From the NCBI GenBank assembly GCA_946185535.1, contig CAMHJX010000007.1, forward strand, positions 62,001 to 126,000: DNA of 64,000 bases, written 5' to 3'. The notes below the pieces were generated by a model that saw only the letters and a program-made list of their open reading frames with translations, was not told the origin of the DNA and searched no databases. The stretch is from an uncultured Bacteroidales bacterium. Lineage in GTDB: Bacteria; Bacteroidota; Bacteroidia; Bacteroidales; F082. Of the stretch, positions 6,001 to 19,765 are shown piece by piece; position 1 is the first letter of the stretch; each line of letters begins with the position of its first letter. The translations under genes and the position numbers were made by a program.

Positions 6001-7283
6001 CATGTTAGCACGATATGGCTCCCATTCGGGATTAGCAATGTGTGTGAGGCGGAAGAACCGCTCTCGACTGTAAGATGTGCTGTGAAACCGCCATAACTCA
6101 CAACCAAGTAATTCCCAGTATACCCATCACCGTATGAATCATAAAGGTCGAAAACAATGGCGCAAACCGATCCTTCCTCGGCAAAGTTCGCCTCCAAAGT
6201 CCTGTCACCCGTAACAGTGAACGAATATTCAGCCTCCGTCGACACCACCTCGTCGTTCTCCGTCCAATTAATAAAGGTGTAGCCCTCGGCGGGCGTCGCC
6301 GTGAGCGTGCATGTGGCGCCCTCTGCGTAGGAGCCACCGCCGCTCACCGCACCGCCCTCCACTGGGTTGGGCGTGGCGTTGATGCCAAAGGAATAATTCT
6401 CGGCAGGGGCAACGAGACGCACACTCCGACCGCTGTATCGGTAGTCGTAGCCGTCCGTGCCGAGGCTCGAATCGAAGAAGCCCACGCGGCACGCGTCGTT
6501 GCTATTGCTGTACGAAGCCGACCAGTAGTAGCCGCTGGAACCGACACCGTAGACCGAAGCCCCGTACCGGCTGCCCGCAGCAGGCAGGAAGACCGCACCG
6601 GCTTGCTCCAAAGCGCTCCACTGCGAAGTGGTAATCACATTGCTGCTGTAGCTGGCACCACCGCTGTTGGTGTTGCTCAAGCTGTAGGTGTCTCTGCTCC
6701 AATCGTCGGGCAGCAGGATTACGCCATTCACACCGTTCACAGTGGCCTTGGCATAGCGTATGCCAGAACTCGTTGTACGAGTGTTGAAGATATATGCCCA
6801 TTCGGGTTGGGTCAACGTTCTCCACTGGTTGGCTTGGTTGCCACCGTTGCTTATCGGGTTGTAACCCCAATCGGCTTGGCCGGTTTGGTCGTACAGGTTG
6901 TAAGTGTAGCTGCCATAGGCACAATAGTCACTAGAGCTTGAACTTGTACTCCAAGGTTGGTAGCAGATGGCACCGTGGTTGTAGCCGCTCGTGCCCCAGC
7001 CGAAGAGGTCGATCCAACCGCTATAGGTGGATGAGATGTTGCTGTTGGCATCTCCCACATAGTCGTACTGGTTCTCGGCAAACTGCCAGGTGTTGGTCGA
7101 GGCCTGGTATTGCAGGTTGCCTTGCGAGAAATACACTTGTGTGCTGTCGCTCACGGAGAACAGGCCTGCAATGGCTCCTGTAGGTGCCTGCGCTTCGGCC
7201 TTGCTCCATCCTATCCACGCCAAGCATAGGGCGAACAAGATGCCAACCGACACCTTTCTCTTTTGTAAATCTTTAATTCTCAT
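1..7283 (-). CDS. Giant modular surface protein, 5' part (runs off left edge)
   Basis: The reading frame is open from the ATG at 7283 to the window edge (about 2,427 codons, no stop seen). It begins with a signal peptide (MRIKDLQKRK, a hydrophobic stretch, then AEAQA). The modules in order are: a FISUMP-like domain (residues ~30-295, WGTSGY, LLPDDW); a divergent InlB-type B-repeat; a DSYGDGY-type domain; three B-repeats; a second DSYGDGY-type domain; another B-repeat; two LamG-like lectin folds (~1067-1267 and ~1345-1547, each opening YYPFDGDANDYSGN); a second FISUMP-like domain (~1557-1824); B-repeats; and a cleaved-adhesin-type jelly roll that starts to repeat at the edge. About ten B-repeats end in LVANF or close variants. 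This architecture suggests an exported adhesin. Any C-terminal sorting signal lies outside the window. The ligand is unknown. Confidence 0.85.
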   Translation of the reverse strand, partial: MRIKDLQKRKVSVGILFALCLAWIGWSKAEAQAPTGAIAGLFSVSDSTQVYFSQGNLQYQASTNTWQFAENQYDYVGDANSNISSTYSGWIDLFGWGTSGYNHGAICYQPWSTSSSSSDYCAYGSYTYNLYDQTGQADWGYNPISNGGNQANQWRTLTQPEWAYIFNTRTTSSGIRYAKATVNGVNGVILLPDDWSRDTYSLSNTNSGGASYSSNVITTSQWSALEQAGAVFLPAAGSRYGASVYGVGSSGYYWSASYSNSNDACRVGFFDSSLGTDGYDYRYSGRSVRLVAPAENYSFGINATPNPVEGGAVSGGGSYAEGATCTLTATPAEGYTFINWTENDEVVSTEAEYSFTVTGDRTLEANFAEEGSVCAIVFDLYDSYGDGYTGNYLVVSYGGFTAHLTVESGSSASHTLLIPNGSHIVLTWIIGSYPEDCSFDIRFETTVSIYHGSNLYNGFLYEFDLSCEDAYAPFSIAATANPTEGGTINGTGIHEGGSTCTLTAMANEGYTFIYWTENEERVMDDATYSFVVNSNRNLVANFTLPFTITATANHAESGMIVGAGTYNYGDTCVLTAIANAGYSFMYWAENGAQISSDSTYSFVVDSDHDLVANFSPFTITAIVNPTGGGDITGMGSYNYGDTCTMTAAANEGYVFMYWTENGEVVSTEAEYSFTVTGDRTLEANFAEEGSVCAIVFDLYDSYGDGYTGNYLVVDYGNGIQDRLTVPSGSYATYTRLVEDGSHVVLTWISGSYPEDCSFALSYSNGDVIYNGTYLNNSFNYEVDVNCAGVPMISFDITTEAIPLEGGAVFGAGEYVYGTTCSLTATANTGYTFINWTENDEVVSTEAEYSFTVMGDRDLVANFGQSVSYRTSLSDDFNDGEIDPELWTYTGNSVLEEDGLLKLQQNVTDQDVHLRSVNLRIPDNGRVYMEREFLVHYSYNYYFASNTIQLNDDENSFLRIEYVYTYYYDDAYQSTPKIGVYLITKLDGAQSELRLCDVSFDTWLTEYVEVDFSTGTLSYQLDGSVATVTVPGLAEQTVDHYNVKYGPYGWWTGHYHYMDYVNINTLTEGLIAYYPFDGDANDYSGNEYHATPYNNYQYEDGIVGDCIAVEGQGYTGSSGGHVMLPELDFGASTGVTLNLWVNALGLSSSDGEAYINFGSDTETDRLYIMHHLDQIRFVYHDAEISIPNEDSYTGNWVMYSLTLDENGTLKAYVNGISVGEESVTFNGINTSLAALGRHWWYDTSTRFIGSFDEVRIYNRALSPEEVQMLYGYNVIEITATATPEEGGTVSGAGLFSHGDTCTLIATPNASYTFINWTENGEEVSAEAEYSFTVTGNRDLVANFMLENPFIPTEDLVAYYPFDGDANDYSGNGNHGTIIGNVVPATDRHGNPNGAYRFPGQAFNYISVPDAEILHLNSFTLSAWVYTDADNYGSGYLINKGRDITNGSYRLNVTGVGAQNEYSGNNGVGIENSPEVNQWHMITGTVEGDQARFYVDGVLQSEGTLSHPFSYGNSEPLTLGCHYYSGVPSNWAYTLLGVMDEVRIYSRVLTHQEVMQLYAIDNGCLPGAFSVAEGSYVNFSKGNLQYQASTDTWRFAENQWDCVGPDNANISETYDGWIDLFGWGTSGYEHGANAYQPWSTSQNNSDYWAYGDSGASLSDQTGQADWGYNAISNGGNQEGQWHTLSHGEWDYLINSRPASTLNGVENARHAKAVVNGIAGLILFPDHYAHPEGIALPVNINAYSSLFTDNEYTMEQWYEMEAAGAVFLPTAGIRNENMPTVGSLGIYWSTTPSGSPYAHRFDFTNDYVVAWGIDSRWYGYSVRLVKNVLTTTCSIEATPNPIEGGTVTGAGTYFVSETCTLTAIPNEGYTFMNWTENGEVVATDATYSFTVTTERNLVANFALPFTITASATPAEGGTVSGAGEYDYGTECTLVATPNEDYNFVNWTKGETVVSTQSSYSFVVTEDADYVAHFVLKLVGTVTAEYDPDPNDNQSPYVRVSWSRDSNMQENFESGDFNMHAWEFPDSYPWVITDYNPYEGGFCMRSNNGGAHNTASSVQTTIFIPWEGQMSFWSRISSESSYDYGRFYIDDQQLGAWSGNGGWEQHIYDITAGQHTFKWAYTKDGSVNSNDDCFYVDNINFFGVTRDGTRAVHHYEVYRSEYPENGSWELIADNVSDTTYVDTDWSALAEGWYQYGVAAYYEGFDTVYPTYMARSNRILRAYPHTITATANPEEGGTITGAGDYVLYTECTLTATANENYTFVNWTENGEVISTESTYSFTVTTERDLVANFALPFTITASATPAEGGTVSGTGEYDYGTECTLVATPNEDYYFSKWTENGTEVSRNATYSFTVTTKRDLVAHFELKPVGLVTAMYDPDPEDNQSPYVRVNWNMEFNLREDFESGDFSQHEWEINGWIVTDYNPYEGTFCM
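5146..5298. repeat. 153-bp perfect direct repeat, copy 1 (inside giant gene)
   Basis: This stretch is identical, base for base, to 6100-6252 (offset 954 bp, a multiple of three). It covers the start of a DSYGDGY-type domain and the end of the preceding B-repeat. Flanking sequence is similar at protein level but diverged in DNA, so the identity points to recent gene conversion or duplication. Confidence 0.9.
6100..6252. repeat. 153-bp perfect direct repeat, copy 2 (inside giant gene)
   Basis: Second copy of the repeat at 5146-5298. The first mismatches bounding the identity are at 6099 and 6253. Confidence 0.9.
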
Positions 7284-7346
7284 AATATTATAATTTGATT
7301 TGTAACTATTTGCAATGCAATTGTCATTACCCAAAAACACGCCGAC

Positions 7347-7381
7347 CAAAGTATAGCAAAAATCTTTATGATTTGCAAAAA
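7347..7381 (-). promoter_or_regulatory. Candidate promoter of the giant surface-protein gene
   Basis: On the minus strand TATACTTTG (7347-7355) resembles the Bacteroidota -7 element TAnnTTTG with one extra base. A TTTTTG -33-like element lies at 7376-7381, about 20 nt away. The leader to the ATG at 7283 would be about 55-60 nt. Confidence 0.5.
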
Positions 7382-7433
7382 CACCGTAACTTTTATTACC
7401 AATTAATTGAACAAAATTTTCCGATAAGTAACT

Positions 7434-7700
7434 ATTCAAAATTAAACTACATGTTTATGACGGGATAATTCTTTAGCTGTAAGCAAACAGCCGTCAGCTA
7501 TCAGCTTGGTTGTACAAGGGCTGAGAGCTGATTGCTGATTGCTGAAAGCCAAATAAATATGTAAACTAAAATTGCACATCTACTTAAGAATATGAGACTA
7601 TGACCAGTGACTATGACCGCTTTGGCTGGCTTTTAGCTTTTAGCGGTTAGCTATTAGCTTGGTAGCTCCAAAGCTAAAGGCTAATAGCTAACAGCCCAGC
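7434..7700. repeat. Intergenic repeat cluster (AGCTATCAGCTTGG family)
   Basis: The 433-base gap 7284-7716 holds the promoter above and this repeat-rich stretch. It contains AGCCGTCAGCTATCAGCTTG (7489 onward) followed by a self-complementary GGCTGAGAGCTGATT stretch. A related palindromic block lies at 7621-7700 (TAGCTATTAGCTTGG facing CTAAAGGCTAATAGCTA). A diverged copy of the first part lies on the other side of the HTH gene (8113-8204). No reading frame in it looks real. Confidence 0.65.
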
Positions 7701-8298: not shown

Positions 8299-9897
8299 TC
8301 ACATTCCCCAAACCATAATTGTATGGCCATTGTATTCGTAGGCTTGGTGCCAAATACGTTCGTCCCAAGTCTTCTCTTGGGTGCGGTCAAAGATGATAAG
8401 ATGGCCTTCGTCGACGGAACCCACCGTGTCCATGTAGCCGGCCGTCTGCTCCAAGCCTTTCTCTATCACCTTGTCGAGGTCGCCCCGCTTGATTTTCAGT
8501 TCCAAGACCACACGTTGCACGGGGCCGCCATAATGGTCCGTCAAGGGTTTACGGATGAGCAAGTCAGTACGCTTGCGGCCCAAGCCGTATTCACGGTCGA
8601 TGTAGCCGCCACCGTTCACAATGCGTTGCAGGAAAGCCTGTAGCAGCAGCTGCGGACCCGCTTCCGCATAGTCGAACTTGCCAATCCACGCATCCGCGTT
8701 TTGGCGGAAGAACTGCTGGAAGTCGAGCAGTAGCTTTTCCATGTTGATGCTGTTGTCGGGGTTTTGGTACCATTGCGGCAGCTGTGTCAGTGTATCTTGT
8801 GTGCTCCATGTGAGTTCGCGGGGGATGATTTCGCGATAGATGCCGTTGGCGATGCGGCGCGGCTTGCCTCGCTCGCGCTTGATGAGACCCATGTCCTCGA
8901 CATACTGGATGTCGTCGGTGGGAATCAGTCCATCGTCTGCCTCATCACTATTAGCCAGCATTGGTTCGATGACCTTTCGCACCCGAGGTTCTTCCAACTT
9001 GTCGATGAGTATGTCAATGTGCGTGTCGCGACGGTAGATGATGTTCTCAATGGCCTTGTCGATCATCTCAGGGATAATGCGGACACTGCGGTCGCGGTTC
9101 TCTTTCATCTTGTAGGTCACTTCTCGTCCAAGGGCATTCACTAACCATGGCTGCCCTTCGGTAGCGTTCCAAACCATTGGGAAACAGGCCTCGTCAAACA
9201 CCTGACCCGTCTCGCGGGTGTGCTGCATATAAAGTTCGTGGATTTCCTCTTTCGAGAAATTGCCCAAGCGCAACGACTCGGTCTTGATGTTAAACGCCGA
9301 ACCGCCAGTAACGATGTCTTGGTTGGAGAGCACGATGCGGTAGTCCCTCACGTCGCGCACGCCGCAGAGGATGATGGACTGCGGGAAAGCCTTAGGCCGG
9401 TCGGCATAGCCCGACCTGATTTGACGGAGCACAGCCACCAAACTGTCGCCCACCAAAGCATCAATCTCGTCGAGAATAAGTACAAAAGGCTTCTCTACCG
9501 ACTTACTCAACAACGACAAAAACTGCGAGAGCATTGAATCAACCGAAAGGCTCTGCACCTGATTACAAATGGTATCGGCCTTTTCGTCATTGAAAATCAG
9601 GCGATAAGCTCCAGTCAATGTATCGATGATGGCCTTCACAACCGTTTCTTTGTCATTACGCGATGCCTGTCCGCCTTCCACATTGACATAAACAGCCATG
9701 TAGTCACCTTCCCTATTCAGGTAGTCGCGAAGGGCGAGCATGCAGGTGGTCTTGCCAGTCTGACGCGGCGCATGTAGCACAAAATACCGCTGCTGGCGGA
9801 TTAAAGTGAGAATGTCCTCCAAGTCGAAACGGCTCAGCGGGTCAATAGTATAGCTGTCAGGCGTTTGCGGTCCGGCGGTGTTGAAGAATCTTTCCAT
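8299..9897 (-). CDS. AAA-like ATPase with C-terminal PD-(D/E)XK nuclease-like domain
   Basis: 532 residues from the chosen ATG (MERFFNTAGPQ). An upstream in-frame TTG at 9918 overlaps the -7 promoter element and is unlikely to be used. The N-terminal half has a Walker A (HAPRQTGKTT, near residue 45) and a Walker B (FVLILDEIDAL), the AAA_35/AAA-like pattern. The C-terminus has a restriction-fold-like signature: GRKRTDLLI, then VVLELKIKRGD. Such ATPase-nuclease proteins are greatly expanded in Bacteroidota and have no settled function. Its own promoter lies in the 54-nt gap to the upstream ATPase. A role in defence or mobile-element biology is possible but not shown. Confidence 0.85.
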   Translation of the reverse strand: MERFFNTAGPQTPDSYTIDPLSRFDLEDILTLIRQQRYFVLHAPRQTGKTTCMLALRDYLNREGDYMAVYVNVEGGQASRNDKETVVKAIIDTLTGAYRLIFNDEKADTICNQVQSLSVDSMLSQFLSLLSKSVEKPFVLILDEIDALVGDSLVAVLRQIRSGYADRPKAFPQSIILCGVRDVRDYRIVLSNQDIVTGGSAFNIKTESLRLGNFSKEEIHELYMQHTRETGQVFDEACFPMVWNATEGQPWLVNALGREVTYKMKENRDRSVRIIPEMIDKAIENIIYRRDTHIDILIDKLEEPRVRKVIEPMLANSDEADDGLIPTDDIQYVEDMGLIKRERGKPRRIANGIYREIIPRELTWSTQDTLTQLPQWYQNPDNSINMEKLLLDFQQFFRQNADAWIGKFDYAEAGPQLLLQAFLQRIVNGGGYIDREYGLGRKRTDLLIRKPLTDHYGGPVQRVVLELKIKRGDLDKVIEKGLEQTAGYMDTVGSVDEGHLIIFDRTQEKTWDERIWHQAYEYNGHTIMVWGM

Positions 9898-9915
9898 GAC
9901 GGTTTCAATTTGGCG

Positions 9916-9948
9916 CAAAGATACACAATTTATTTTGGTTCATCCAAA
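9916..9948 (-). promoter_or_regulatory. Promoter of the third ATPase gene
   Basis: TATCTTTG (9916-9923) matches TAnnTTTG exactly, with TTTG (9945-9948) 21 nt upstream as the -33 element. The predicted leader to the ATG at 9897 is only about a dozen nucleotides, and this placement decides against the TTG start at 9918. Confidence 0.7.
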
Positions 9949-9951
9949 AAG

Positions 9952-11508
9952 TCAAACGACCACCTCAAAGATCCGTTTGCCGTTCCATTCCATCCATTGC
10001 GGCTCGGCATCTTGTTTGTCTTTCGAGAAGTCGAAGGTGACGAGGTAGCCTTCATCCATACCCCGTGTGGCAAGATAGCCTGAAAGCTGGTCGCGGCCTT
10101 TCTCCTCATATTTGTCGCCGTGCCAAATCTTTAGTTCAACAATAAACTCTTGCTTATCGTAGGTCACCACCAAGTCCATGCGGCGGTTGTCGCGGGTTTG
10201 AGGTTCCACATAGTAGAAGCCGATGCCGTTGATGATGGACTTGAGGAAAGTGAGGAACAGCAAACGGCCTTCTTTTTCGAGGAACGGTACGGTGCTCTCA
10301 CGATACTCCTCGTGCATCAAGTCGCGGAAACGTGTGACCACATGTTCCATGTTGAGCTTTCCATTTTGGACATAGTTCAACAAATAGGGTGAAATCCTTA
10401 TCCCCTGCTCGCGCATGGTCTTGTTGCCGAAATAGACGAACAGTGCCTCCTCGAAAATGAGGTTGTGTATCATCGTCTTGCCGCGTTGGTTCTCCTTGAT
10501 GTAGGAAAACATGTTGGTCAACTTCACCATCGGGTCAACAAAGGTGTAGGTGTATTCCTGTCCGTTGACGACCATGGAGTAGAGGAAGTCGCGCAACTCG
10601 GGGATGCTCTCCAAATTCTTGGAAAGGTCGTCGAGCAAGGTGACATTCTCACCTTTGGCGATGATTTTCACGGCCTTCTGCACGCCCTCCGCCGTCCATT
10701 CCTTGTCCAAGCGTTCGTCGATCAGCTTGCATATGGCGCTCACAAGATAGGGATAGCCCGACGTGTATTTGTATATCTCCTCTCCCATCGCCTTGAGGTC
10801 CATGCCCGTATGTTCATCGTTTTCATAATCTTGAAGCATCTGCGCGATTTCGTCGGGATGGAAGGTCATGTCCACGTTGAAGTCGGCGGCGATGTTCCAA
10901 GGCGAGTTGTATTTCCTTTCGGCGTCAGGGCGCAGTTTCAACTTGAGGTTCTTGATGTCGTAAACGCCTGCGAGGACAACGCTGTGGAAGGTGGATTCCA
11001 TCCCCTCACGGTCACGTTCAAGATATTTGTTGCGGAGCATTCCCAAGAAATTGAGGAACAATTGGTTGTCGCTGCTTTTGTCCACCTCGTCGATGGTGAC
11101 GATGACAGGTTTGGGGGCTTTCTGGCAGAATTCTGTGATCAGGGCCGAAAGGTCGTCCAAGTTCGACAACGTGCTTTCGCTCCACATCGTGGACCAATCG
11201 CCTTCCTTGTTGAACGAGGATAGCTTCCGGGCCATCTGACGGGCAAACATTTTAACGAATGCCTCATGCGAAGCGAAAGCGGAATCGTCAATCCCCTCAA
11301 AGCTCAATGGAACAACAATATACTGCTCCGACATCCTTTTCCAAATGAGATTCAAGGTGGTTGTCTTGCCGTATTGCCTCGCACGGTTGATGGTGAAATA
11401 CTCGCCTTTGTCAATCAGGTCTTTGACTGCATCAAATCGCTTTTCCGTATCCACCATATAGTGTCTTTCGGGGTTGCAACTGCCTGTGATATTGAATCTT
11501 CTTTTCAT
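9952..11508 (-). CDS. AAA-like ATPase with C-terminal PD-(D/E)XK nuclease-like domain (second subfamily)
   Basis: 518 residues. Walker A is RARQYGKTTT (~residue 43) and Walker B is PVIVTIDEVDK (~residue 135). The C-terminus carries NRRMDLVVTYDKQEFIVELK and then GRDQLSGYLATRG, the D..ELK core of a PD-(D/E)XK nuclease-like fold. The sequence differs clearly from both neighbours, so the three genes are separate subfamilies rather than recent duplicates. It starts 13 nt after the stop of the upstream ATPase (11522) and probably shares its transcript. Function unknown. Confidence 0.85.
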   Translation of the reverse strand: MKRRFNITGSCNPERHYMVDTEKRFDAVKDLIDKGEYFTINRARQYGKTTTLNLIWKRMSEQYIVVPLSFEGIDDSAFASHEAFVKMFARQMARKLSSFNKEGDWSTMWSESTLSNLDDLSALITEFCQKAPKPVIVTIDEVDKSSDNQLFLNFLGMLRNKYLERDREGMESTFHSVVLAGVYDIKNLKLKLRPDAERKYNSPWNIAADFNVDMTFHPDEIAQMLQDYENDEHTGMDLKAMGEEIYKYTSGYPYLVSAICKLIDERLDKEWTAEGVQKAVKIIAKGENVTLLDDLSKNLESIPELRDFLYSMVVNGQEYTYTFVDPMVKLTNMFSYIKENQRGKTMIHNLIFEEALFVYFGNKTMREQGIRISPYLLNYVQNGKLNMEHVVTRFRDLMHEEYRESTVPFLEKEGRLLFLTFLKSIINGIGFYYVEPQTRDNRRMDLVVTYDKQEFIVELKIWHGDKYEEKGRDQLSGYLATRGMDEGYLVTFDFSKDKQDAEPQWMEWNGKRIFEVVV

Positions 11509-11521
11509 GTCAATTGCTTTT

Positions 11522-13111
11522 CTAGTCCGTCAAATACCCCCCTACCGTCATCGTGTCCCTATCAAACTGCACGCCGACTTTCACCACGCGGCGGCCTTCA
11601 GTCTGGTAAGGCAGGTAATAGCCTTTGCCGTTGATCTGCTCGAAGGCCTGCTGTGCCGTGCCGTTCACCTTCAACTCGAAGACATAGGTTGTGTCGGGCA
11701 TCAGCACCACAAAGTCGATGCGACCGTTGGCGCACTTCACTTGTGTTTGGGCATACACGTTGAGCATGTTGAAGATGAGCCAAAAGGTGTATTCATAGAA
11801 GCCTTCGTAGTTCTTCACCTCCTCCAATTTCTTCTGGAAACCCTCCACATACGGGATGCTGGCGAGGAAAGCTTTCATCTCCTGCATGGCTGCATCGATG
11901 TCGTTTTTCTTGAGGGCGCGCCAGAACTTCAGGACAAAGCCGTCTTGTACCATACTGCTATCCAAGCCGATGTAGGTTGGAATCAGCCCATCGACCAAGC
12001 CCACCTTGACTTCCTTGTTGGGGATGGAAAGAATATACGTGTCCGACTCACGGTCGTAACCCTTGATGGTAATGTAGCCGCTTTGGTAGAGTAAGGGAAG
12101 CGCATTGGTCATAGCCTCGGTGGGGCGGTCAAAAGAGGAGGCTGAGGCCTCTATCCTGTCCATCGTGGTGATGTCGGTGCGGAAATATTGCATCTGGCAG
12201 ATGAGGAAGGTCGGCGTGCCGCTCTCGAACCAATAGTTGGACACTTTCTGCTGTACAAAACACTTCAACAGGCTGAAAGGATTATAGACATCTGGCGAGA
12301 CCTCTGAAAACCGATAGCCGTCATACTGTAACTTCAATTTGGCATGCATTTCCTCAAACGTAACTTCCTCCTTGTCTGCCAGCTTCTGTATGTCGGGGGC
12401 CATATCCGTCACAAATTCTTCCTCCGTAATCCCGCAAATGGCCGCGAATTTAGGATCCATCGAGATGTTGGTCAGGTTGTTGATGGTGGATAAAATGCTC
12501 AGCTGGCTGAACTTGGTAATGCCCGTGATGAAGCAGAAACGAATCATGGCCTCGTTGGCTTTCAGTTGAACGTAAAACTCTTGCATGACATTGCGGAAAT
12601 CTTCAAGTTGCTGGCTCTCGTGCAAGACATCGAGCAAAGGCGCGTCATACTCGTCTATTATGACTACCACTTGCTTGCCAGTTTTCCGGAAGGCTCTTTG
12701 TATCAGTCCGTTCAACATTTTACCTGGAGAGGTTTCAAGGTTAGACCTCCCATATTCCTCACACAGCGGATCCATTAACCACATCAAAGTGTTCCGAAGC
12801 TCATCAACGGAGGGTTGACGTTTGGCCACACTCAAATCGATATGAATGACAGGATAACTCTCCCATTCCGTCTCCAGGTCCATAATCTTCAGGCCCTCAA
12901 AAAGTTCTTTTTGGCCTTTGAAATACGAGTCCAACGTGGTGGTCAGCAACGACTTTCCGAACCTTCGCGGACGGCTGAGGAAGACAAACGGGCTCTCTTT
13001 GGTCATTTTCCAGACCAAGTCGGTCTTGTCGATATAGACGTAACCTTCCTTACGGATGCGGGAGAAGGTCTGAATCCCCACGGGGTAGCGACGTTCAGCT
13101 AAGTTAGCCAT
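11522..13111 (-). CDS. AAA-ATPase-like (PF09820 type) protein with PDDEXK_9 nuclease-like domain
   Basis: 529 residues. The opening YPVGIQTFSRIRKEGYVYID and Walker A SRPRRFGKSLL are the hallmark of the AAA-ATPase_like family. Walker B is VVIIDEYDAPL (~residue 160). The C-terminal GRIDFVVLMPDTTYVFELK followed by QINGKGYYLPY matches the PDDEXK_9 nuclease-like pattern. This family is one of the commonest of unknown function in Bacteroidales. It is first in a probable two-gene unit with 9952-11508 and has a promoter at 13137-13144. The leader sequence is duplicated at 8206-8241 without a gene. Confidence 0.9.
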   Translation of the reverse strand: MANLAERRYPVGIQTFSRIRKEGYVYIDKTDLVWKMTKESPFVFLSRPRRFGKSLLTTTLDSYFKGQKELFEGLKIMDLETEWESYPVIHIDLSVAKRQPSVDELRNTLMWLMDPLCEEYGRSNLETSPGKMLNGLIQRAFRKTGKQVVVIIDEYDAPLLDVLHESQQLEDFRNVMQEFYVQLKANEAMIRFCFITGITKFSQLSILSTINNLTNISMDPKFAAICGITEEEFVTDMAPDIQKLADKEEVTFEEMHAKLKLQYDGYRFSEVSPDVYNPFSLLKCFVQQKVSNYWFESGTPTFLICQMQYFRTDITTMDRIEASASSFDRPTEAMTNALPLLYQSGYITIKGYDRESDTYILSIPNKEVKVGLVDGLIPTYIGLDSSMVQDGFVLKFWRALKKNDIDAAMQEMKAFLASIPYVEGFQKKLEEVKNYEGFYEYTFWLIFNMLNVYAQTQVKCANGRIDFVVLMPDTTYVFELKVNGTAQQAFEQINGKGYYLPYQTEGRRVVKVGVQFDRDTMTVGGYLTD

Positions 13112-13168: not shown

Positions 13169-14947
13169 TCAACGCCTTTCGACATCCACGACCAAGCGGA
13201 CAGATTGTGCATAATAGCGCATCGAGGAGAGAAAATAAATGTCATCATGATCGAATTTGATACCATGGACATATTTACCGCTTATGTACTCCGAAGTATG
13301 GTAATAGCCAATCGAACCTGTATGTTCAATATATTGTTCCTGCCTTCGCCCGGCTGCTGGCAAGAATATGGCTCCATGGAACTGCAAATACCGATCCCAT
13401 ATAAGACTTGATAGGACATTACCGCTAAAGCTTGCTTCAACTTGATTCACATTATTCAGATGATACATCGAACTGCTCCAATCATCGGGAAGCAAAATCA
13501 CCCCATTCACGCCCTCCACCTGAGCCTTGGCAAATCGGATGCCCGAAGGCGTGCTGCGATAATGGAAGATGTAATCCCACTCGTCCAACGTAAGGGTACG
13601 CCATTGGTTCTCAGTGTCCCCACCATTTGAGATGGCATTGTAGCCCCAATCCGCCATGCCCGTCTGATCGTATAAGTTGTAGTTCTCGTTTCCATACGCC
13701 CAATAGTATTCCACCGCGTTAATCGTACCCCAAGGCTGATAGCACATCGCACCGTGATCATATCCACTTGTCCCCCAACCGAAAAGGTCGAGCCAGCCGG
13801 CATAGTTTTCAGCTGCATTGGCATTGCTTTCGCCAATGTAGTCAAACTGGTTTTCGGCGAACTGCCATTTGTCCAAAGACGGATTATACTGGAGATTGCC
13901 TTGCGAGAACCACACTTGACGGTTCTCCGCCACAGAAAACCGTCCATCAAGAGCTCCTAAAGGAGCAAAAATATACTCCAAGGTGCTAAAGCTCATCGTT
14001 TCCCCATAATTGACACCTTTGCTGTTTTTGGCGTAGGCCCGCGCATAATAGGTGGTGTTGGCTTCAAGTTCGGCCATGCTTATGACATAGTCGCCCAACC
14101 CACCACCATCGGCATACACGAAATCGGCAATGTTAGGGTTAGGGTCAACACTCCAGCAAGCACCACGCTCAAACACTTCGGAGCCGCCGTCATCGACAAC
14201 AGTACATAGGCAGGAAGCCGTTGTGACCGAAACGCCAGTTATTTCCATGGTAACCACCGTGGGCAGATTCACCTCCAATCCAGTGACCAACTCCATCACA
14301 GCACCGTAGTTAGTGCCACAGGCATTTTTGGCGTAGGCGCGGACATAATACTTCGTGAAAGGCTGCAATCCCGTCAGCTGGCAGGTGTATTCACCCATTC
14401 CGCCTTCGGCATGGGTCAGGCGGTCGTCGTCGGTGGTCGGGTCGCCATATTCGTTCCAGCACACGCCACGCTCAGTCACCTCCGCACCTCCTTCATAACT
14501 CACCTTGCACTTCACCCGTGCCTTAAGGCTGTCAATCATTAATACTTCCAAGGTTTCCACCATGGGAAGTTCCGAAGCGGTCGTAAACGAATACACCTCG
14601 CTGTGCCAATCGGTTACGGAGCCGAAGTCGGCAATGTAGCAATAATAATACAAGGTGCCCGCCTCAAGTCCGGTGATGTTGACCGTGTAGGACTTGCCAC
14701 TGAGTGCAGCCGGAAAATCATCCGCTCCGTGCAGATGTTCTTCCTTGCTTACCCGTAGCTTCAAGTCGTTGATAACCCCTTGATAGACATATTCGCCCCG
14801 GATGGTCACACTGTCGACACCGATTTCAATTTTCTCCTTCTCCTTCAGAATCTGGATGGTTTGGGATTCTGGCTGAACGTCTTTTTCGCATGACGACAGC
14901 AAAGCGATGGCACAAAGCCACATAACAAATAAGATTTTAGAACGCAT
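13169..14947 (-). CDS. Lipoprotein with fibronectin-III-like repeats and a FISUMP-like domain
   Basis: 592 residues. A signal peptide ends in a lipobox (LLSSC, Cys20), so a surface or periplasmic lipoprotein is expected. Three beta-sandwich repeats follow (~30-330), with the Bacteroidota pattern GVCWNEYGDPTTDD...YYVRAYAKN. The last 255 residues form the FISUMP-like domain (YFSQGNLQY, DLFGWGTSGYDHGA, GVILLPDDW, SVRLV), also found twice in the giant protein at 1-7283. The gene overlaps the upstream outer-membrane protein gene by 11 nt, making it the last gene of the sigma factor-caspase operon. It may be the surface-exposed output or sensor of that system (inference). Confidence 0.85.
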   Translation of the reverse strand: MRSKILFVMWLCAIALLSSCEKDVQPESQTIQILKEKEKIEIGVDSVTIRGEYVYQGVINDLKLRVSKEEHLHGADDFPAALSGKSYTVNITGLEAGTLYYYCYIADFGSVTDWHSEVYSFTTASELPMVETLEVLMIDSLKARVKCKVSYEGGAEVTERGVCWNEYGDPTTDDDRLTHAEGGMGEYTCQLTGLQPFTKYYVRAYAKNACGTNYGAVMELVTGLEVNLPTVVTMEITGVSVTTASCLCTVVDDGGSEVFERGACWSVDPNPNIADFVYADGGGLGDYVISMAELEANTTYYARAYAKNSKGVNYGETMSFSTLEYIFAPLGALDGRFSVAENRQVWFSQGNLQYNPSLDKWQFAENQFDYIGESNANAAENYAGWLDLFGWGTSGYDHGAMCYQPWGTINAVEYYWAYGNENYNLYDQTGMADWGYNAISNGGDTENQWRTLTLDEWDYIFHYRSTPSGIRFAKAQVEGVNGVILLPDDWSSSMYHLNNVNQVEASFSGNVLSSLIWDRYLQFHGAIFLPAAGRRQEQYIEHTGSIGYYHTSEYISGKYVHGIKFDHDDIYFLSSMRYYAQSVRLVVDVERR

Positions 14948-15761
14948 AACCTATACCTATTTTAGTTTCTACATATTGGAATTGTGTGGTGACGGCTTCC
15001 AACGACACGACGAGACCATGCCAATGCACTTGGGCACCCGCCGAGAGGTCGAGCCCTTGCCAGCTGAACGCCTTGTTGCGATACCATTCGTTATCCGTAG
15101 TCTTCCAGCGCATGGTCCGGTTGCCATAGCCCACTCCTGCACGGAGCAGCAAAGGGCCTTTCACACGCATCAATCCGCCTGCCATGACGGAAAACCGCAT
15201 CTTGGAAACCTCACCCGTGTATGTCATCAAGTGGCCGTCGGAGAGGAGTCCTTGCTTGTCGCATTCGCCGTCGAAACGGAACCCGCCAAAATTGCCATTG
15301 GTCATCGCACTCACAAACCAGCCAAAATGCTTCACCTGTCCCACGCTGAAACCCAACGAACCTTGCGGAGCGAAGCTGTAGGCAGCATTGAGGGTGACAA
15401 AAGTCTCGCGCGGCCAACGTTCTTTCAACTTCAAGCCTAATTTGAAGCGCACCGTCTCATTATCGAACGACTCAAGGCCAAGCTCCTTCAGCACATCCCA
15501 AAGGATACTGTGGCCAAAGCCCGCCTCCACATCGGCGACATCGCCGCTCACCTGCTGCAACGGGCCACGATAGGTGGCTCCACCATCCAAAGAGACATAC
15601 AAACGCACGAAGTCGGCATCGGCACCCAAGTCATACTCCACCACAATGTTTTTTCCTCTCGGATAAGCCTTCACAATATTGGCCACCTCTTGCGCCAACA
15701 TAGGTTGCCACATCAAGCTGCCAAGCAAAAACATTATCGCTGCTAACTTTCTCATCAACAT
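14937..15761 (-). CDS. Predicted outer-membrane beta-barrel protein
   Basis: 274 residues. It has a signal peptide (ending near MLAQE) and a short N-terminal beta domain (ANIVKAYPRGKNIVVEYDLG, then VRLYVSLDGGATY). Alternating amphipathic strands follow up to a terminal aromatic (GIGYAF), as expected for an outer-membrane barrel. I do not recognise a named family. It starts 3 nt after the caspase-like gene and overlaps the lipoprotein gene, so it is co-translated with both. It could anchor or export the lipoprotein, but this is only inferred from context. Confidence 0.75.
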   Translation of the reverse strand: MLMRKLAAIMFLLGSLMWQPMLAQEVANIVKAYPRGKNIVVEYDLGADADFVRLYVSLDGGATYRGPLQQVSGDVADVEAGFGHSILWDVLKELGLESFDNETVRFKLGLKLKERWPRETFVTLNAAYSFAPQGSLGFSVGQVKHFGWFVSAMTNGNFGGFRFDGECDKQGLLSDGHLMTYTGEVSKMRFSVMAGGLMRVKGPLLLRAGVGYGNRTMRWKTTDNEWYRNKAFSWQGLDLSAGAQVHWHGLVVSLEAVTTQFQYVETKIGIGYAF

Positions 15762-15764
15762 AGC

Positions 15765-17009
15765 TTATTTGAGTTTTATGGTTCTCCATTCTTCCATGGT
15801 GCCGATTGCCGAAGGACGTTGTGGCTTCAAACCTTGCAAGGCCGCCATTCGGGCAACGTTTTCGTTGAGATAGTCGGCCAACTCGCCTGCGGTGATGTCG
15901 CCACCCGTCTCCTTTAGTTTCTTCAAAAGATAATAGGTGAACAAGCCATGCGACTTCTCCTGATAGGCGAAGGCGGTTTCGTTGCCTCGCGCAGCCGAAA
16001 ATGCTATGGCATTACCTTGCAGTTCACCGGCCTTGGAGTTGACGGCCACGCCACGGCTTTCGGCCATCATGTCGCCCTCACGGGTGGCTCCGCTGAAGCA
16101 GGCATCGACGAAAAACATCATCAACTCGGCATCAGCCGAACCCAATTGGGCATAAAGGTCATCCAATCCATAGCTCGACTCCATGTTGGAGCCATAGCCG
16201 TCGACAGGCAGTAGATAGGCGTTGCGGCTTGTCTCATCGGGGATGCCATGACCTGAATAATAGAAGACGCCTTTCGCCTCGCCGTGGAAGGCCTGCAAAG
16301 TGGCTTCCAACCAGTCCACCTCATACCGTATGTTGTTCAACGTGCCATCCGTCACGATATGGATGTTCTTCTCAGGGATACCCAACAATTGTGTGCAATA
16401 CTCCTTAAAGATCTCGCCATCGTGAATGGCAAAAGGAACATTCTGTTCGAGTTGATAATCCTCATTGGCGATGATGACAACAAAAGTTCGGTCGTTCACC
16501 ACGTCAGTGACGGGAATATCGGTATCCACTTCGGAGGGGACAATGCCCTTGCTAAATTGGCTGATATGGAAGCTGTAGAGCGGCGACTCCACTTCGTAGA
16601 GGCTTGTTCCCTCCAGCATGAAAAGCATCTCATCAGGCGACATGCCGCTCAGCTCATAATAACGCGTTCGCGCCTCTTTGACCTTGTTTTTGGGAACCAT
16701 GATGACGCTAAGTGTGTCCGCTGTAGTCAGCGTCCATTGACGCGTCACGTGCAGATTCACCACCTCATAGCCCTGCTTTTTCACTTCCAAACCATGGACC
16801 ACATCCCCGACACGGTGTTTTGCAAAACGCAAACGGAAACATCCCTTGGCATCACTCATCGTAGGCTGACAGTCATGTTCCGAAGGGATGGCGAGCGTAA
16901 CGCCTACGAGTGGATGGTCATCTTCTCCCACAATCTTACCATATTGCACCGTTTGGCCGAAGAGTGGACCTACCAGCAACAACATTGTAAACAGCATCAG
17001 GTTTCTCAT
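15765..17009 (-). CDS. Exported caspase-like peptidase (family C14) with carboxypeptidase-regulatory-like domain
   Basis: 414 residues from the ATG at 17009, which overlaps the upstream stop (ATGA). The alternative start 23 codons earlier would bury the signal peptide (MRNLMLFTMLLLVGPLFG). Residues ~25-107 form a CarboxypepD_reg-like fold (GKIVGEDDHPLVGVTLAIP). The C14 domain spans ~170-400: the catalytic His254 is in YYSGHG and the catalytic Cys304 in FFVDACFSG. Asp preceding Ala-Cys is typical of metacaspase-like prokaryotic enzymes, which usually prefer basic P1 residues (family knowledge). Having a signal peptide, it should act in the envelope or periplasm. It lies between the anti-sigma candidate and the outer-membrane protein, which suggests signal-dependent proteolysis. 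Confidence 0.9.
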   Translation of the reverse strand: MRNLMLFTMLLLVGPLFGQTVQYGKIVGEDDHPLVGVTLAIPSEHDCQPTMSDAKGCFRLRFAKHRVGDVVHGLEVKKQGYEVVNLHVTRQWTLTTADTLSVIMVPKNKVKEARTRYYELSGMSPDEMLFMLEGTSLYEVESPLYSFHISQFSKGIVPSEVDTDIPVTDVVNDRTFVVIIANEDYQLEQNVPFAIHDGEIFKEYCTQLLGIPEKNIHIVTDGTLNNIRYEVDWLEATLQAFHGEAKGVFYYSGHGIPDETSRNAYLLPVDGYGSNMESSYGLDDLYAQLGSADAELMMFFVDACFSGATREGDMMAESRGVAVNSKAGELQGNAIAFSAARGNETAFAYQEKSHGLFTYYLLKKLKETGGDITAGELADYLNENVARMAALQGLKPQRPSAIGTMEEWRTIKLK

Positions 17010-17782
17010 GGCTCGACTCCTTTCTCCAAAGTAATCAACCAGGGCTCCGTTGCCGAAGGCCTGTAAAGCTCGTCCCAAGTCTGATAGCCCTCCTTGGCGA
17101 CCAGCACACGTTGGGTTTCGTCCTGCTTCTCGTAAGGAATCTCTATCCTGAATTGGCCCAACGCATCGGTGACAGTGCTAAATTCGAGCAGACTCACCGT
17201 GGCACCTTCGATGGGCTGGCCGTTCTCGAAATCACACACCCTGCCAAAAACCACGCCGAGCTCATTGTTGCGCCTTATGCACAACTCCACGGCGCGTTGC
17301 GCTTTCACCACTGTATCGATGGTCTGGTAGCCCTCCGATTCAAAGACGAGATGCACGCGGCTGCCTTTCAAATGATAAGGGATGTCGTTCAGGAACACCG
17401 TCCGGTTTTCTGAGGTAACAGGTATCGTTTGCAAGGCGTTGCCAGCATATTCGCATTGGAGTGTGCCGCCTTCGAAAGGAAGGACAGGTATGGAACAGGA
17501 TGAGTCTTCCGTGATGTTGACCTTCATCTGCAATGGTGTGAACAGTCGCCACAATAGCAAGGCGAGGCATCCCACCATCACCAATGCAGCTATGGCGTAG
17601 ACGAAGAAACGTCGTTTGAGACGCTTGAATCCCAACTCGTATCGTGTCAACATGACAGCATTCATGGCATCCTCATGTTCAGACAGGTACCGTTCCACAG
17701 CTGCCTTCTCAGTCGCCGTCAACTTGCCTTCGAGATAGCAGGCCAACAGCTCGTCCGTGACTTCCATCTTGTCATTTTTCAT
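17006..17782 (-). CDS. Single-pass membrane anti-sigma candidate with periplasmic carboxypeptidase-regulatory-like domain
   Basis: 258 residues from the ATG at 17782, which overlaps the sigma-factor stop by ATGA. Residues 1-45 are a helical cytoplasmic segment (LLACYLEGKLTATEKAAVER) like anti-sigma N-termini, but without the zinc-binding His-Cys-Cys set. One membrane helix lies near 59-78 (FVYAIAALVMVGCLALLLW). The remaining ~175 residues are extracytoplasmic, with a beta-sandwich (GVVFGRVCDFENGQPIEGAT, then TDALGQFRI). Position and topology support regulation of the adjacent sigma factor. The overlap with the caspase-like gene on the other side suggests that the peptidase is part of the same circuit. 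Confidence 0.75.
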   Translation of the reverse strand: MKNDKMEVTDELLACYLEGKLTATEKAAVERYLSEHEDAMNAVMLTRYELGFKRLKRRFFVYAIAALVMVGCLALLLWRLFTPLQMKVNITEDSSCSIPVLPFEGGTLQCEYAGNALQTIPVTSENRTVFLNDIPYHLKGSRVHLVFESEGYQTIDTVVKAQRAVELCIRRNNELGVVFGRVCDFENGQPIEGATVSLLEFSTVTDALGQFRIEIPYEKQDETQRVLVAKEGYQTWDELYRPSATEPWLITLEKGVEP

Positions 17783-18363
17783 TGGTCTTTCCCTTTCATC
17801 ATCTTTTTCACTGCTTTTCGGGCTTTCTTGGTCAGGTTGTAGACCGCTGTGACGGTGCATCCAAGTTCCTCCGCAATCACCTCTACATTCTTGCCTGTGA
17901 GCTCACCGAGGAGGGCAAGACGCTCCCTCGGTTTCTTGAGGCGGTCGATAGCTTCATAAAGCTCGACCCTCGACATTTCGTGAAAGATGTCATAGTCGTC
18001 AGCTTTATTTTCGGCCTCATACATTAATAGAGGGTCCAACATCTTGTTTTTAGTCTGTGTTGATGCTTTTTTTGCACTGAAATAGCGAGCGGCAACAATG
18101 GCCAACCAGGTATCGAGCGCCGAGCGAAAACCAAACTGCCTGAGTCTTTTCCAATCGTTGTCCCTAAGGTAAAGATAAAACTCAGTGATGAGCTCCTCTT
18201 TCTTGCCTTGTGACGGATTGAAGCTGTTTACAATATGTTCCAACATACCGTCACAACGGTGGAAAAAGACATACTCCACCGCATCCTCGTCGTTGGCGAG
18301 AAGCAGGTCCACCAATTGACGGTCCGACAAACGGTTCATTCTATGCCGTTGTTTCTCAGTCAT
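17779..18363 (-). CDS. Sigma-70 family (ECF-like) RNA polymerase sigma factor
   Basis: 194 residues. Region 2 spans ~15-95 (ELITEFYLYLRDNDWKRLRQ, FRSALDTWLAIVAARYF). Region 4 lies at ~140-190, with a helix-turn-helix that reads GKNVEVIAEELGCTVTAVYN. It is the first gene of a five-gene operon in which the next two junctions are ATGA overlaps. A TATTTTTG promoter element lies just upstream. By analogy with other ECF systems it should bind the downstream membrane protein until a signal releases it, then transcribe its own operon and other targets. The targets are unknown. Confidence 0.9.
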   Translation of the reverse strand: MTEKQRHRMNRLSDRQLVDLLLANDEDAVEYVFFHRCDGMLEHIVNSFNPSQGKKEELITEFYLYLRDNDWKRLRQFGFRSALDTWLAIVAARYFSAKKASTQTKNKMLDPLLMYEAENKADDYDIFHEMSRVELYEAIDRLKKPRERLALLGELTGKNVEVIAEELGCTVTAVYNLTKKARKAVKKMMKGKDQ

Positions 18364-18386
18364 TCAGAAATGAATGGATTTTGCGG

Positions 18387-18394
18387 CAAAAATA
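18387..18394 (-). promoter_or_regulatory. -7 element upstream of the sigma factor operon
   Basis: TATTTTTG on the minus strand, 24 nt upstream of the sigma-factor ATG. It suggests basal transcription by the housekeeping sigma. No convincing -33 element at the normal distance. Confidence 0.55.
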
Positions 18395-18418: not shown

Positions 18419-19765
18419 TTAATTTTTCACAAACGCCACAATCATCTCCAACACCTCGGGTGAGATGGTCTCGTCAATCTCAAAATATTCGTTGGGCGAA
18501 CCCGTCTCGCAATGTTGGAAAAGATGGTTCAAGTTGGGCAACTCATGCAGCGTGAGGTTGGTCTTGCCATGTTCGGCAATAATTTTCTCATAACCAGACA
18601 GATTCTGTGAGGCTATCACTTGTAAATCCTTAGAACCATTAAGCAGCAAAGCAGGACAGTTGGTCTTCACAATGGCTTCGGTGGGGTCGTATTTCAGGAA
18701 ATAATACATCCACGGCGACGCCATTTGTGATACGGTCTGCTCAGTCAATTCTTCGTTGTAACCCCAGCCTTTCAACAATTGGCGCAACAGGCTGTCGGCC
18801 TCTTCCCTACTGCTTGAGGCTTCGATGATGTCGAACATCTGAGCGTTAGTATTACTGTTGAATTGAACAGCTTCATCCGTCATACCCGAAGCCCTAAGTA
18901 TGGCCTTTTGTTGCTCTTTGAGAACTTCAATGCCATTAACAGACGGACCTGCTAAAGAGACCAAAAACGCCACCTCAGGCCGACGCGCCGACACCATAAA
19001 GTTGATGACGCCGCCTTCGCTGTGGCCCAAGATACCGACCTTCGAAGCATCGATTTCCTTGCGGTTACGGAGATAGTCGAAGGCAGCCTCGGCATCGTAG
19101 GAGAAGTCCATGGAGGTGGCATTCTTCACTTCACCTTCAGAGCCACCAACACCACGGTCGTCGTAACGCAACACAGCAATGCCATGGAGAGCGCAATAAT
19201 CCGCGATGACCCAGAAAGGACGATGGTTCATCAACTCCTCATCGCGATCCTGCTGACCACTACCCGAGACGAGCACCATGGCTGGAAACGGGCCCTCGCC
19301 TTTGGGGATAGTCAAAGTGCCAACTAACTTGTTGCCTTCTTTTTCATTGACAAAGGTCACTTCCTCGATATGATAATCGAATGGAGGCAGTGGATCTTGT
19401 AGGCGTGCCTTTTTCTGTTCTTTTTTCTCTGCCTTGGCAAGGTTGAGCGTAAAGGTCATGCCGTGTTGAGTGAACTCCCCTTCTATGGTCGAGTCTTTCA
19501 GCACACCTAAATAAGTGGCACCCAAGGCGTTCATTTTCAATTCCAAATGTCCGTCTTGGAAGGTTGTTTCGTCCACTGGAATATCATACGCACCTTGTGC
19601 AGGCACATCAAAAGTGGCAGAATAGCCGCTTTCAATGGCTTTGATGTCGAAAGCCGTCTCCAACTTTTGTACACCTAGGTCAATCTCACCTTTCCAATAG
19701 CCCTCGATTTGGGCTTGGGATTGCAGGACGGCAAATAACAAGAAGAATAAGATTTTGTTTTTCAT
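18419..19765 (-). CDS. Exported alpha/beta hydrolase
   Basis: 448 residues with a signal peptide (MKNKILFFLLFAVLQSQAQ). An N-terminal beta-rich domain (~20-125) is followed by a serine hydrolase domain. The oxyanion region is VSGSGQQDRDE, the nucleophile elbow is GHSEGG (Ser249), the acid probably lies in LLNGSKDLQV, and the His in NLNHLFQ. The pattern fits the serine aminopeptidase/acyl hydrolase group that Bacteroidota export in many copies. The substrate cannot be read from the sequence. The sigma-factor gene lies 55 nt upstream but a promoter element in that gap suggests separate units. Confidence 0.9.
   Translation of the reverse strand: MKNKILFFLLFAVLQSQAQIEGYWKGEIDLGVQKLETAFDIKAIESGYSATFDVPAQGAYDIPVDETTFQDGHLELKMNALGATYLGVLKDSTIEGEFTQHGMTFTLNLAKAEKKEQKKARLQDPLPPFDYHIEEVTFVNEKEGNKLVGTLTIPKGEGPFPAMVLVSGSGQQDRDEELMNHRPFWVIADYCALHGIAVLRYDDRGVGGSEGEVKNATSMDFSYDAEAAFDYLRNRKEIDASKVGILGHSEGGVINFMVSARRPEVAFLVSLAGPSVNGIEVLKEQQKAILRASGMTDEAVQFNSNTNAQMFDIIEASSSREEADSLLRQLLKGWGYNEELTEQTVSQMASPWMYYFLKYDPTEAIVKTNCPALLLNGSKDLQVIASQNLSGYEKIIAEHGKTNLTLHELPNLNHLFQHCETGSPNEYFEIDETISPEVLEMIVAFVKN

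What the first reader, a model, noticed from the sequence alone, without database searches (positions are those of the whole stretch)
13169..18363. Sigma factor, membrane anti-sigma candidate and exported caspase-like peptidase in one overlapping operon
Five genes are joined by ATGA overlaps (17779-17782, 17006-17009), a 3-nt gap and an 11-nt overlap: ECF-like sigma, one-pass membrane protein, C14 peptidase with intact His254/Cys304, outer-membrane protein, lipoprotein. Known ECF circuits use site-2-type proteases to release sigma. An exported metacaspase-like enzyme between an anti-sigma candidate and an outer-membrane pair would be a different logic: either it cleaves the periplasmic part of the anti-sigma, or it processes the surface lipoprotein. 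I know of no named system with this layout.
Basis: partly seen in the sequence, partly recalled or inferred. Interest (0 to 1): 0.75.

Follow-up and report, generated by a model that had tools for sequence, protein, structure and literature searches.

The report
Sigma-factor operon with fused exported caspase
In one group of uncultured animal-gut bacteria, a gene switch that probably senses the cell envelope shares a conserved operon with an exported caspase-like enzyme fused to what looks like the switch's own partner domain; what the enzyme cuts is unknown.

Summary
The operon is real and conserved: eight other genomes of the genus carry sigma, one-pass putative anti-sigma, exported C14 peptidase and OMP in this order, with the lipoprotein next in the seven whose contig reaches it. 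The caspase gene is a fusion. Its N-terminal domain (NDOM) heads a separate protein encoded just upstream of sigma in 21 other loci. Its caspase part belongs to a more widespread envelope module (often with DUF4384), with no sigma in 28 of 28 stretches read. The fusion looks like a single event. Sigma-anti-sigma(-NDOM) and caspase-OMP have conflicting trees in the window. Best reading: an ECF sigma/anti-sigma switch took over an envelope protease cassette and fused its partner domain to the protease. "The caspase cleaves the anti-sigma" is not excluded, but near-identical anti-sigma domains occur without a caspase, and no basic residue is special to the fused class. Many relatives carry a C39-type peptidase domain, catalytic residues in place, inside the anti-sigma gene; this lineage lacks it. 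Sigma-caspase pairings have precedents: a new variant of a known kind.

The parts
17779..18363 (-). SIG: ECF-type sigma factor, 194 aa (P0001)
17006..17782 (-). ANTI: putative membrane anti-sigma, 258 aa (P0002): N-terminal domain, hydrophobic stretch from residue 59, C-terminal region ending in CarboxypepD_reg; lacks the C39 domain of many relatives
15765..17009 (-). NDOM::C14 fusion, 414 aa (P0003), caspase-like peptidase with a signal-like N-terminus (by eye)
   Evidence: fusion
16647..16955 (-). NDOM, about residues 19-121; weakly CarboxypepD_reg-like (0.02, below cut-off); elsewhere the head of a separate protein encoded just upstream of SIG
15768..16544 (-). C14 (caspase) part, residues 156-414; His254 codon 16248-16250, Cys304 codon 16098-16100, Asp302
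14937..15761 (-). OMP: putative outer-membrane beta-barrel protein, 274 aa (P0004)
   Evidence: next to C14 in all 13 C14 loci of this clade (window, L033-L038, L092-L094, L096, L098, L099)
13169..14947 (-). LIP: lipoprotein with fn3-type domains and a C-terminal paralogous domain, 592 aa (P0005)
18386..18394 (-). TATTTTTGC box 31 nt upstream of SIG (Bacteroidota -7 type; consensus recalled); a TAnnTTTG box lies upstream of SIG in 9 of 9 fused loci, by eye, at varying distance
18419..19765 (-). EstD-like alpha/beta hydrolase, upstream neighbour in most but not all fused loci (not seen in L092 and L099); probably not part of the switch

Best explanation
An ECF sigma/anti-sigma switch with an exported partner (the NDOM protein) has taken over an exported caspase-OMP-lipoprotein cassette as its co-transcribed output, and in one lineage fused its partner domain NDOM to the caspase. 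Proposed working: the anti-sigma holds the sigma at the inner membrane through its N-terminal domain (inferred). Its periplasmic region reads an envelope signal, with NDOM as contact or co-sensor (inferred: NDOM lies in the SIG gene run in 30 of 37 loci). Freed sigma raises the envelope operon (inferred; no promoter evidence). The caspase then cuts an envelope or foreign substrate after Arg/Lys beside the OMP and lipoprotein (inferred from the caspase family). Shown by computation: operon, conservation, fusion, one clade of fused genes, conflicting trees, dyad in place, purifying selection. Not shown: binding, signal, export, substrate, regulon.
For: Same order and near-identical spacing in 9 loci. 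Fused rows form one clade for NDOM (100/99) and C14 (98/97). In the alignment NDOM plus a short linker stands where unfused C14 has its signal peptide. Unfused relatives hold NDOM::TPR-SIG-ANTI and, further along the same strand, LPP20-like, DUF4384, C14, OMP (L036, L037, L096). In 28 C14 stretches outside this clade (25 from other families, 3 from the same genus) DUF4384 is near in 14, the LPP20-like gene in 10, SIG in 0. SIG-ANTI heads operons with a TGL-type and a lipoprotein-like gene in two other families (L210, L213). Conflict: SIG+ANTI+NDOM rejects window with L098/L033 (p 0.025); C14+OMP rejects window with L092/L034 (p 2.6e-7; with L093 added 5e-4); base identity shifts at about +1800. 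Median dN/dS 0.08-0.18.
Against: No interaction, regulon or substrate data. On SIG+ANTIc the fused class is not one clade on the best tree (2 changes; 15% of bootstrap trees have 1). NDOM alone rejects nothing (p 0.083-0.495) and the window+L092+L034 group has only 74/97 on SIG+ANTI+NDOM; the tested groups were chosen after seeing trees. The box upstream of SIG is the generic one (14 of 31 such matches in the window lie just upstream of an ORF), so autoregulation is not evidenced. The anti-sigma call rests on position, topology and a weak zf-HC2 match. Seven of 37 SIG loci have no NDOM. NDOM, TGL and OMP labels rest on weak matches.
Confidence: 0.55

Rival explanations
1. One reading: the NDOM-tethered caspase is the activating protease. 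On a signal it cuts the periplasmic part of the anti-sigma after Arg/Lys and so starts release of the sigma.
For: The fusion places the caspase on a domain of the sigma/anti-sigma gene run; His and Cys in place in 9 of 9 fused rows; a caspase-like protease relieves sigma inhibition in CRISPR type III-E (PMC10028731, passages read).
Against: Closely similar anti-sigma periplasmic domains occur in SIG loci with no C14 in the flanks fetched. Of 13 K/R positions conserved in the fused class none is exclusive to it (each basic in 5 to 18 of the 18 other rows; two of these, L036 and L096, have an unfused C14). No added loop or stalk in the fused class. C14 and SIG-ANTI trees conflict.
Confidence: 0.2
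2. One reading: the caspase processes the neighbouring surface lipoprotein or OMP (maturation or shedding).
For: C14, OMP and LIP are contiguous in 8 of 9 fused loci (the ninth contig ends in OMP) and in unfused L036-L038; window and L098 group in LIPc (100/100) as in C14+OMP.
Against: LIP varies in length (490 to 594 aa in the fused loci) and its C-terminal domain is the least conserved part (56% median identity). In unfused L096 no LIP directly follows OMP. No conserved cleavage site in LIP was searched for.
Confidence: 0.17
3. Operon hitch-hiking: the caspase cassette merely shares a transcript with the switch, and NDOM is only a localisation domain.
For: C14-OMP-LIP without SIG in the 12 kb read of L038 (the contig starts 2.7 kb upstream of C14, so an upstream SIG is not excluded), whose genome has SIG on another contig; no SIG in 28 of 28 other C14 stretches.
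Against: The layout is kept in nine genomes with purifying selection on all parts, and NDOM lies in the SIG gene run in 30 of 37 loci.
Confidence: 0.08

Closest known systems
Metacaspase-sigma-70 operons of Myxococcus, Anaeromyxobacter, Haliangium, Sorangium, Ralstonia and Fibrobacter (PMC3501461; section on operons read)
   Same: caspase-homologue gene and sigma-70-type gene in one predicted operon, conserved between genera; that survey also reports OmpA domains in 14 metacaspase operons
   Different: that section names no membrane anti-sigma and no fusion of a sigma-module domain to the caspase; other phyla
EACC2/TRADD-N caspase systems with ECF sigma (PMC8195603, passages read) and ECF54 with CHAT proteases (PMC8999054, passages read)
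   Same: ECF sigma coupled to caspase-like protease genes
   Different: here a membrane anti-sigma and an apparently exported enzyme; the EACC1-caspase model stays below its cut-off (54.7 against 140 bits); EACC2 was not tested; ECF54 control is proposed there without an anti-sigma
Type III-E CRISPR Csx29/Csx30/CASP-sigma (PMC10028731, passages read)
   Same: ECF sigma, its inhibitor and a caspase-family protease in one locus; inhibitor cleavage is proposed to relieve the sigma
   Different: RNA-triggered CRISPR effector; no Cas match among the 7 window proteins scanned (no CRISPR search was run); the caspase here has a signal-like N-terminus
Dma/Das (ECF21) dual membrane-spanning anti-sigmas of Bacteroides (PMC13088901, PMC9308784; passages read)
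   Same: Bacteroidales ECF sigma with a neighbouring one-pass anti-sigma; envelope signalling
   Different: here the anti-sigma is 258 aa without tether or barrel; the barrel candidate is a separate gene; a caspase is present
Paracaspase MALT1 (PDB 3V4O)
   Same: best solved-structure match of the NDOM::C14 profile, 1.4e-5, in the caspase part
   Different: eukaryotic protein with other accessory domains (recalled)

Membership tests
ECF sigma factor | full-length relation to sigma-E type factors (sigma2 and sigma4 regions) | tested here: met
   family profile matches 1OR7 over positions 8-184 at 4.8e-7; Sigma70_r4_2 8.8e-6; the single sequence is below NCBIfam's ECF cut-off and Pfam reports no region 2 match
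Class I membrane anti-sigma | N-terminal anti-sigma domain, one TM, periplasmic part, gene beside sigma | tested here: inconclusive
   gene pairing in 37 of 37 loci, two of them on weak or C39-only matches; one hydrophobic stretch; zf-HC2 weak, 25 of 38 members at E<=1; only one Cys and one His in the first 58 residues
Class I membrane anti-sigma | binds and inhibits the cognate sigma | not testable with these tools
   structure prediction switched off; no two-chain fold offered
Peptidase C14 / caspase homologue | Peptidase_C14 match with His-Cys dyad and Asp two residues before Cys | tested here: met
   1.1e-15; dyad in 23 of 24 rows, K and S in L139
Peptidase C14 / caspase homologue | proteolysis after Arg/Lys | not testable with these tools
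   inferred from family (PMC6426788, start of abstract seen in the listings)
EACC1-associated caspase (NF047832) | score above curated cut-off | tested here: not met
   54.7 bits against 140
Dma dual membrane-spanning anti-sigma | one polypeptide with anti-sigma domain, TM, long disordered tether and C-terminal beta-barrel | tested here: not met
   258 aa, ends in CarboxypepD_reg; OMP is a separate gene
CRISPR type III-E Csx29/CASP-sigma | gRAMP/Cas7-11 and TPR-CHAT in the locus | not tested
   no CRISPR or Cas search was run; none among the 7 window proteins scanned
Regulated intramembrane proteolysis circuits | site-1 and site-2 cleavage of the anti-sigma | not testable with these tools
   needs experiment; no genome search for site-2 proteases was run

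The most novel reading that the evidence does not exclude
A Bacteroidales ECF family in which control of the anti-sigma is tied to cysteine proteases from either side of the inner membrane. In many members a C39-type peptidase domain with Cys and His in place is built into the anti-sigma between its N-terminal domain and the membrane span. In the window's lineage that domain is absent, and a paracaspase-like enzyme tethered in the periplasm by the module's own partner domain gates the switch.
Probability: 0.2. Interest if true: 0.8.

Novelty: new variant of a known kind. Interest (0 to 1): 0.52.

Why it matters
Caspase homologues are common in bacteria and mostly without a known pathway. Here one is fused to a domain that elsewhere marks a specific sigma/anti-sigma gene run, with nine natural versions and unfused relatives from which an order of events can be inferred. 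That gives a testable link between an apparently exported caspase and transcription. The C39 domain inside the anti-sigma of relatives is a second testable protease-sigma link, for which the rows listed showed no report.

Tried and rejected
Strict C39-for-C14 exchange: rejected. C39 is also absent in L036, L047, L048, L051, L100-L104 and L139, which lack the fusion; L037 and L096 have both. C39 needs at least 3 changes on the SIG+ANTIc tree; that these are losses is my reading.

Cleavage site special to the caspase-linked anti-sigmas: none of 13 conserved K/R positions is exclusive to the fused class.

Autoregulatory ECF promoter: only the generic -7 type box was seen upstream of SIG.

Dma membership and EACC1-caspase membership: not met.

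Class-wide spread: at E<=1e-25 the SIG profile matched 1 of 295 class-level genomes, the window's own; order level 16 of 393 at 1e-20, 11 of 393 at 1e-15 with the single sequence. Single-sequence searches of P0001, P0002 and P0003 against solved structures gave nothing or chance-like matches, as did the profile of the anti-sigma N-terminus.

The first ORF pass hid the OMP gene in L093 and L098 behind longer opposite-strand ORFs; six-frame reading and tblastn showed it in place.
Full report
1. Observation. Domain scans give an ECF-type sigma factor; a 258-aa protein with one hydrophobic stretch from residue 59 and a C-terminal CarboxypepD_reg domain; a protein with Peptidase_C14 at residues 176-387; a weak beta-barrel match; and a lipoprotein with fn3-type domains. 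Signal peptides and the lipobox were judged by eye only. The sigma assignment is firm as a family (1OR7, 4.8e-7). The anti-sigma assignment is weaker: gene position, topology and a zf-HC2 match below the cut-off in the window's member (25 of 38 members match at E<=1).

2. Source. The window lies in a 3.67-Mb draft genome of 86 contigs. G450, of the same genus, has a SIG locus on a contig of 471,467 bases, the length of JAGHUX010000005.1, titled Candidatus Limimorpha caballi. Other named records are uncultured Bacteroidales, several with horse faeces, yak abomasum or red deer in the title (lineage). That the genus is Limimorpha or close kin is inferred from the contig lengths.

3. Conservation. 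The C14 protein was sought in 100 relatives (38 with a match at 1e-3), the sigma in 99 genomes of the genus (25 at 1e-15, 29 places) and the anti-sigma in the same 99 (23 at 1e-10, all among the 25). I read 37 SIG loci: 25 of the 29 genus places, 6 from order-level genomes, 6 named records. Nine have SIG-ANTI-NDOM::C14-OMP at nearly the same offsets (NDOM 1402-1408, C14 1813-1822, OMP 2599-2605 except L094 at 2827): window, L033, L034, L035, L092, L093, L094, L098, L099. LIP follows in eight; the contig of L033 ends inside OMP. Of the four other genus places, two were read later (L217, L218), one is cut by a contig end (L105) and one with stops inside (G047:C5) was not read. Upstream chromosomal genes are shared by all eight other fused loci as far as their contigs reach (L033 shows EstD only; L092 and L099 lack EstD but share genes beyond it), so the locus looks orthologous. 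Median pairwise dN/dS is 0.08-0.18 per part; dS was saturated in many pairs (15 to 35 usable per part, of 28 or 36).

4. The fusion. The window's own genome has a second SIG locus (L049) with a TGL-type gene, an NDOM protein, SIG and ANTI. An NDOM protein encoded just upstream of SIG is the rule outside the fused class: 21 loci (11 close relatives, L100-L104, and the more distant L106, L136-L138, L140). Its C-terminal part is clearly TPR in L106 (2.4e-37) and only weakly so in L049 (0.0028). NDOM itself matches CarbopepD_reg_2 only at 0.02 in the window and no such Pfam family in L049. 'TGL' (transglutaminase-like, Pfam 0.16) and 'LPP20-like' (no Pfam match) are my labels; DUF4384 passes its cut-off (2.5e-6). 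L036, L037 and L096 carry NDOM::TPR-SIG-ANTI and, further along the same strand, LPP20-like, DUF4384, an unfused C14 with its own signal-like N-terminus, and OMP. In alignment A2 the fused protein reads NDOM, a short linker, then the sequence that follows the signal peptide of unfused C14. Trees place the nine fused rows in one clade for NDOM (100/99) and C14 (98/97). SIG+ANTIc puts them with L036 and L051 (100/100) but leaves L099 unresolved: 2 changes on the best tree, 1 in 15% of bootstrap trees.

5. Origin of the caspase part. C14 relatives (E<=1e-20) occur in 85 of 393 order-level genomes. I fetched 20 of the listed stretches, all from other families, and reread 8 earlier ones (5 from other families; L039, L040 and L043 from the same genus): DUF4384 in 14 of 28, LPP20-like in 10, TGL-type in 5, OMP in 2, SIG in 0. 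L174 had a weak ANTIc hit (3e-5). The caspase thus belongs mostly to a sigma-free envelope module; that the module is the older state is my inference.

6. Conflicting trees. On SIG+ANTI+NDOM the window sits with L092/L034 (74/97), and holding it with L098/L033 is rejected (p 0.025). On C14+OMP it sits with L098/L033 (97/96), and holding it with L092/L034 is rejected (p 2.6e-7; with L093 added 5e-4; C14 alone with L093 0.034). NDOM alone rejects nothing (p 0.083-0.495). The groups were picked after seeing trees. Base identity of the window to L098 is 78-94% upstream of SIG, 56-73% from SIG to about +1800, then 71-83% apart from the last step (61%); L092 is the closer one only from SIG to about +1800, by small margins around +1200. 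So SIG-ANTI(-NDOM) and C14-OMP-LIP appear to have exchanged separately, with a break near the NDOM/C14 border. This favours NDOM belonging with the switch and speaks against tight co-adaptation of C14 with ANTI.

7. C39. Eighteen of 37 loci have a C39-type domain in the gene after SIG; in 13 of these the gene also has the membrane span and ANTIc part. Pfam Peptidase_C39_2 1.1e-6 in L049. Cys and His are present in 19 of 19 aligned copies, Asp in 18 by eye (not L111). C39 presence needs at least 3 changes on the SIG+ANTIc tree. Distant SIG plus C39 heads stand before dynamin-like genes (L108, L109, L143; Hsp70 shown in L108), TIR and nSTAND1 genes (L111) and an M48 peptidase (L107); SIG with an anti-sigma-type gene stands before TGL-type and lipoprotein-like genes in L210 and L213. 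The head looks like a modular switch.

8. Mechanism. What is shown and what is inferred is marked in the best explanation.

9. Literature. Searches: 20 of 61 listed; 6 of 6; 15 of 93; 4 of 4; 3 of 3; 20 of 39; 10 of 690. Read in passages: PMC8999054, PMC10028731, PMC13088901, PMC9308784, PMC8195603; passages and the operon section of PMC3501461; PMC6426788 only as the start of its abstract. These give precedents for sigma-caspase operons and for a caspase-like protease acting on a sigma inhibitor. No listed paper described a C39 domain in an anti-sigma or this operon, as far as titles and abstract starts show; unlisted rows and papers outside the library were not seen.

10. Verdict. Real, conserved and informative; a new variant of a known kind, interest 0.52.

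Noticed in passing
L037, L049, L050, L052, L095-L097, L106, L110, L136-L138, L140 (anti-sigma gene downstream of SIG): Putative anti-sigma proteins with a C39-type cysteine-peptidase domain, Cys and His in place, between the N-terminal domain and the membrane span; presence changes at least 3 times on the tree.
   Followed up: partly
L108:9704-14128, L109:6330-9321, L111:9780-14459, L143:1717-4590: The same sigma plus C39 head before dynamin-like GTPase genes (Hsp70 also in L108) or TIR and nSTAND1 genes (L111), which look like conflict or defence components.
   Followed up: partly
L139:6085-8136: Caspase-like domain whose dyad positions read Lys and Ser instead of His and Cys, upstream of a SIG gene with a 110-aa anti-sigma-like ORF and an ORF that looks Hsp70-like by eye.
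   Followed up: no
window 8299-13111 (-): Three tandem genes of 539, 518 and 529 aa; the one scanned is AAA-ATPase_like plus PDDEXK_9. They follow the lipoprotein gene and had no match in the 13 relatives' loci tested.
   Followed up: no
window 3-7439 (-): Very large protein (2479 aa, runs off the window) with two matches to the lipoprotein's C-terminal domain; that domain recurs near several SIG loci.
   Followed up: no
L039:5058-13203, L040:5444-8709: Exported-looking C14 proteins (three in L039) near LPP20-like and DUF4384-type genes, a sigma-free form of the caspase module in the same genus.
   Followed up: partly
window 18386-18394 and 13 other sites: TAnnTTTG boxes: 14 of 31 in the window lie within 150 nt upstream of an ORF start in a crude ORF set, as expected of the Bacteroidota -7 element (consensus recalled).
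   Followed up: partly
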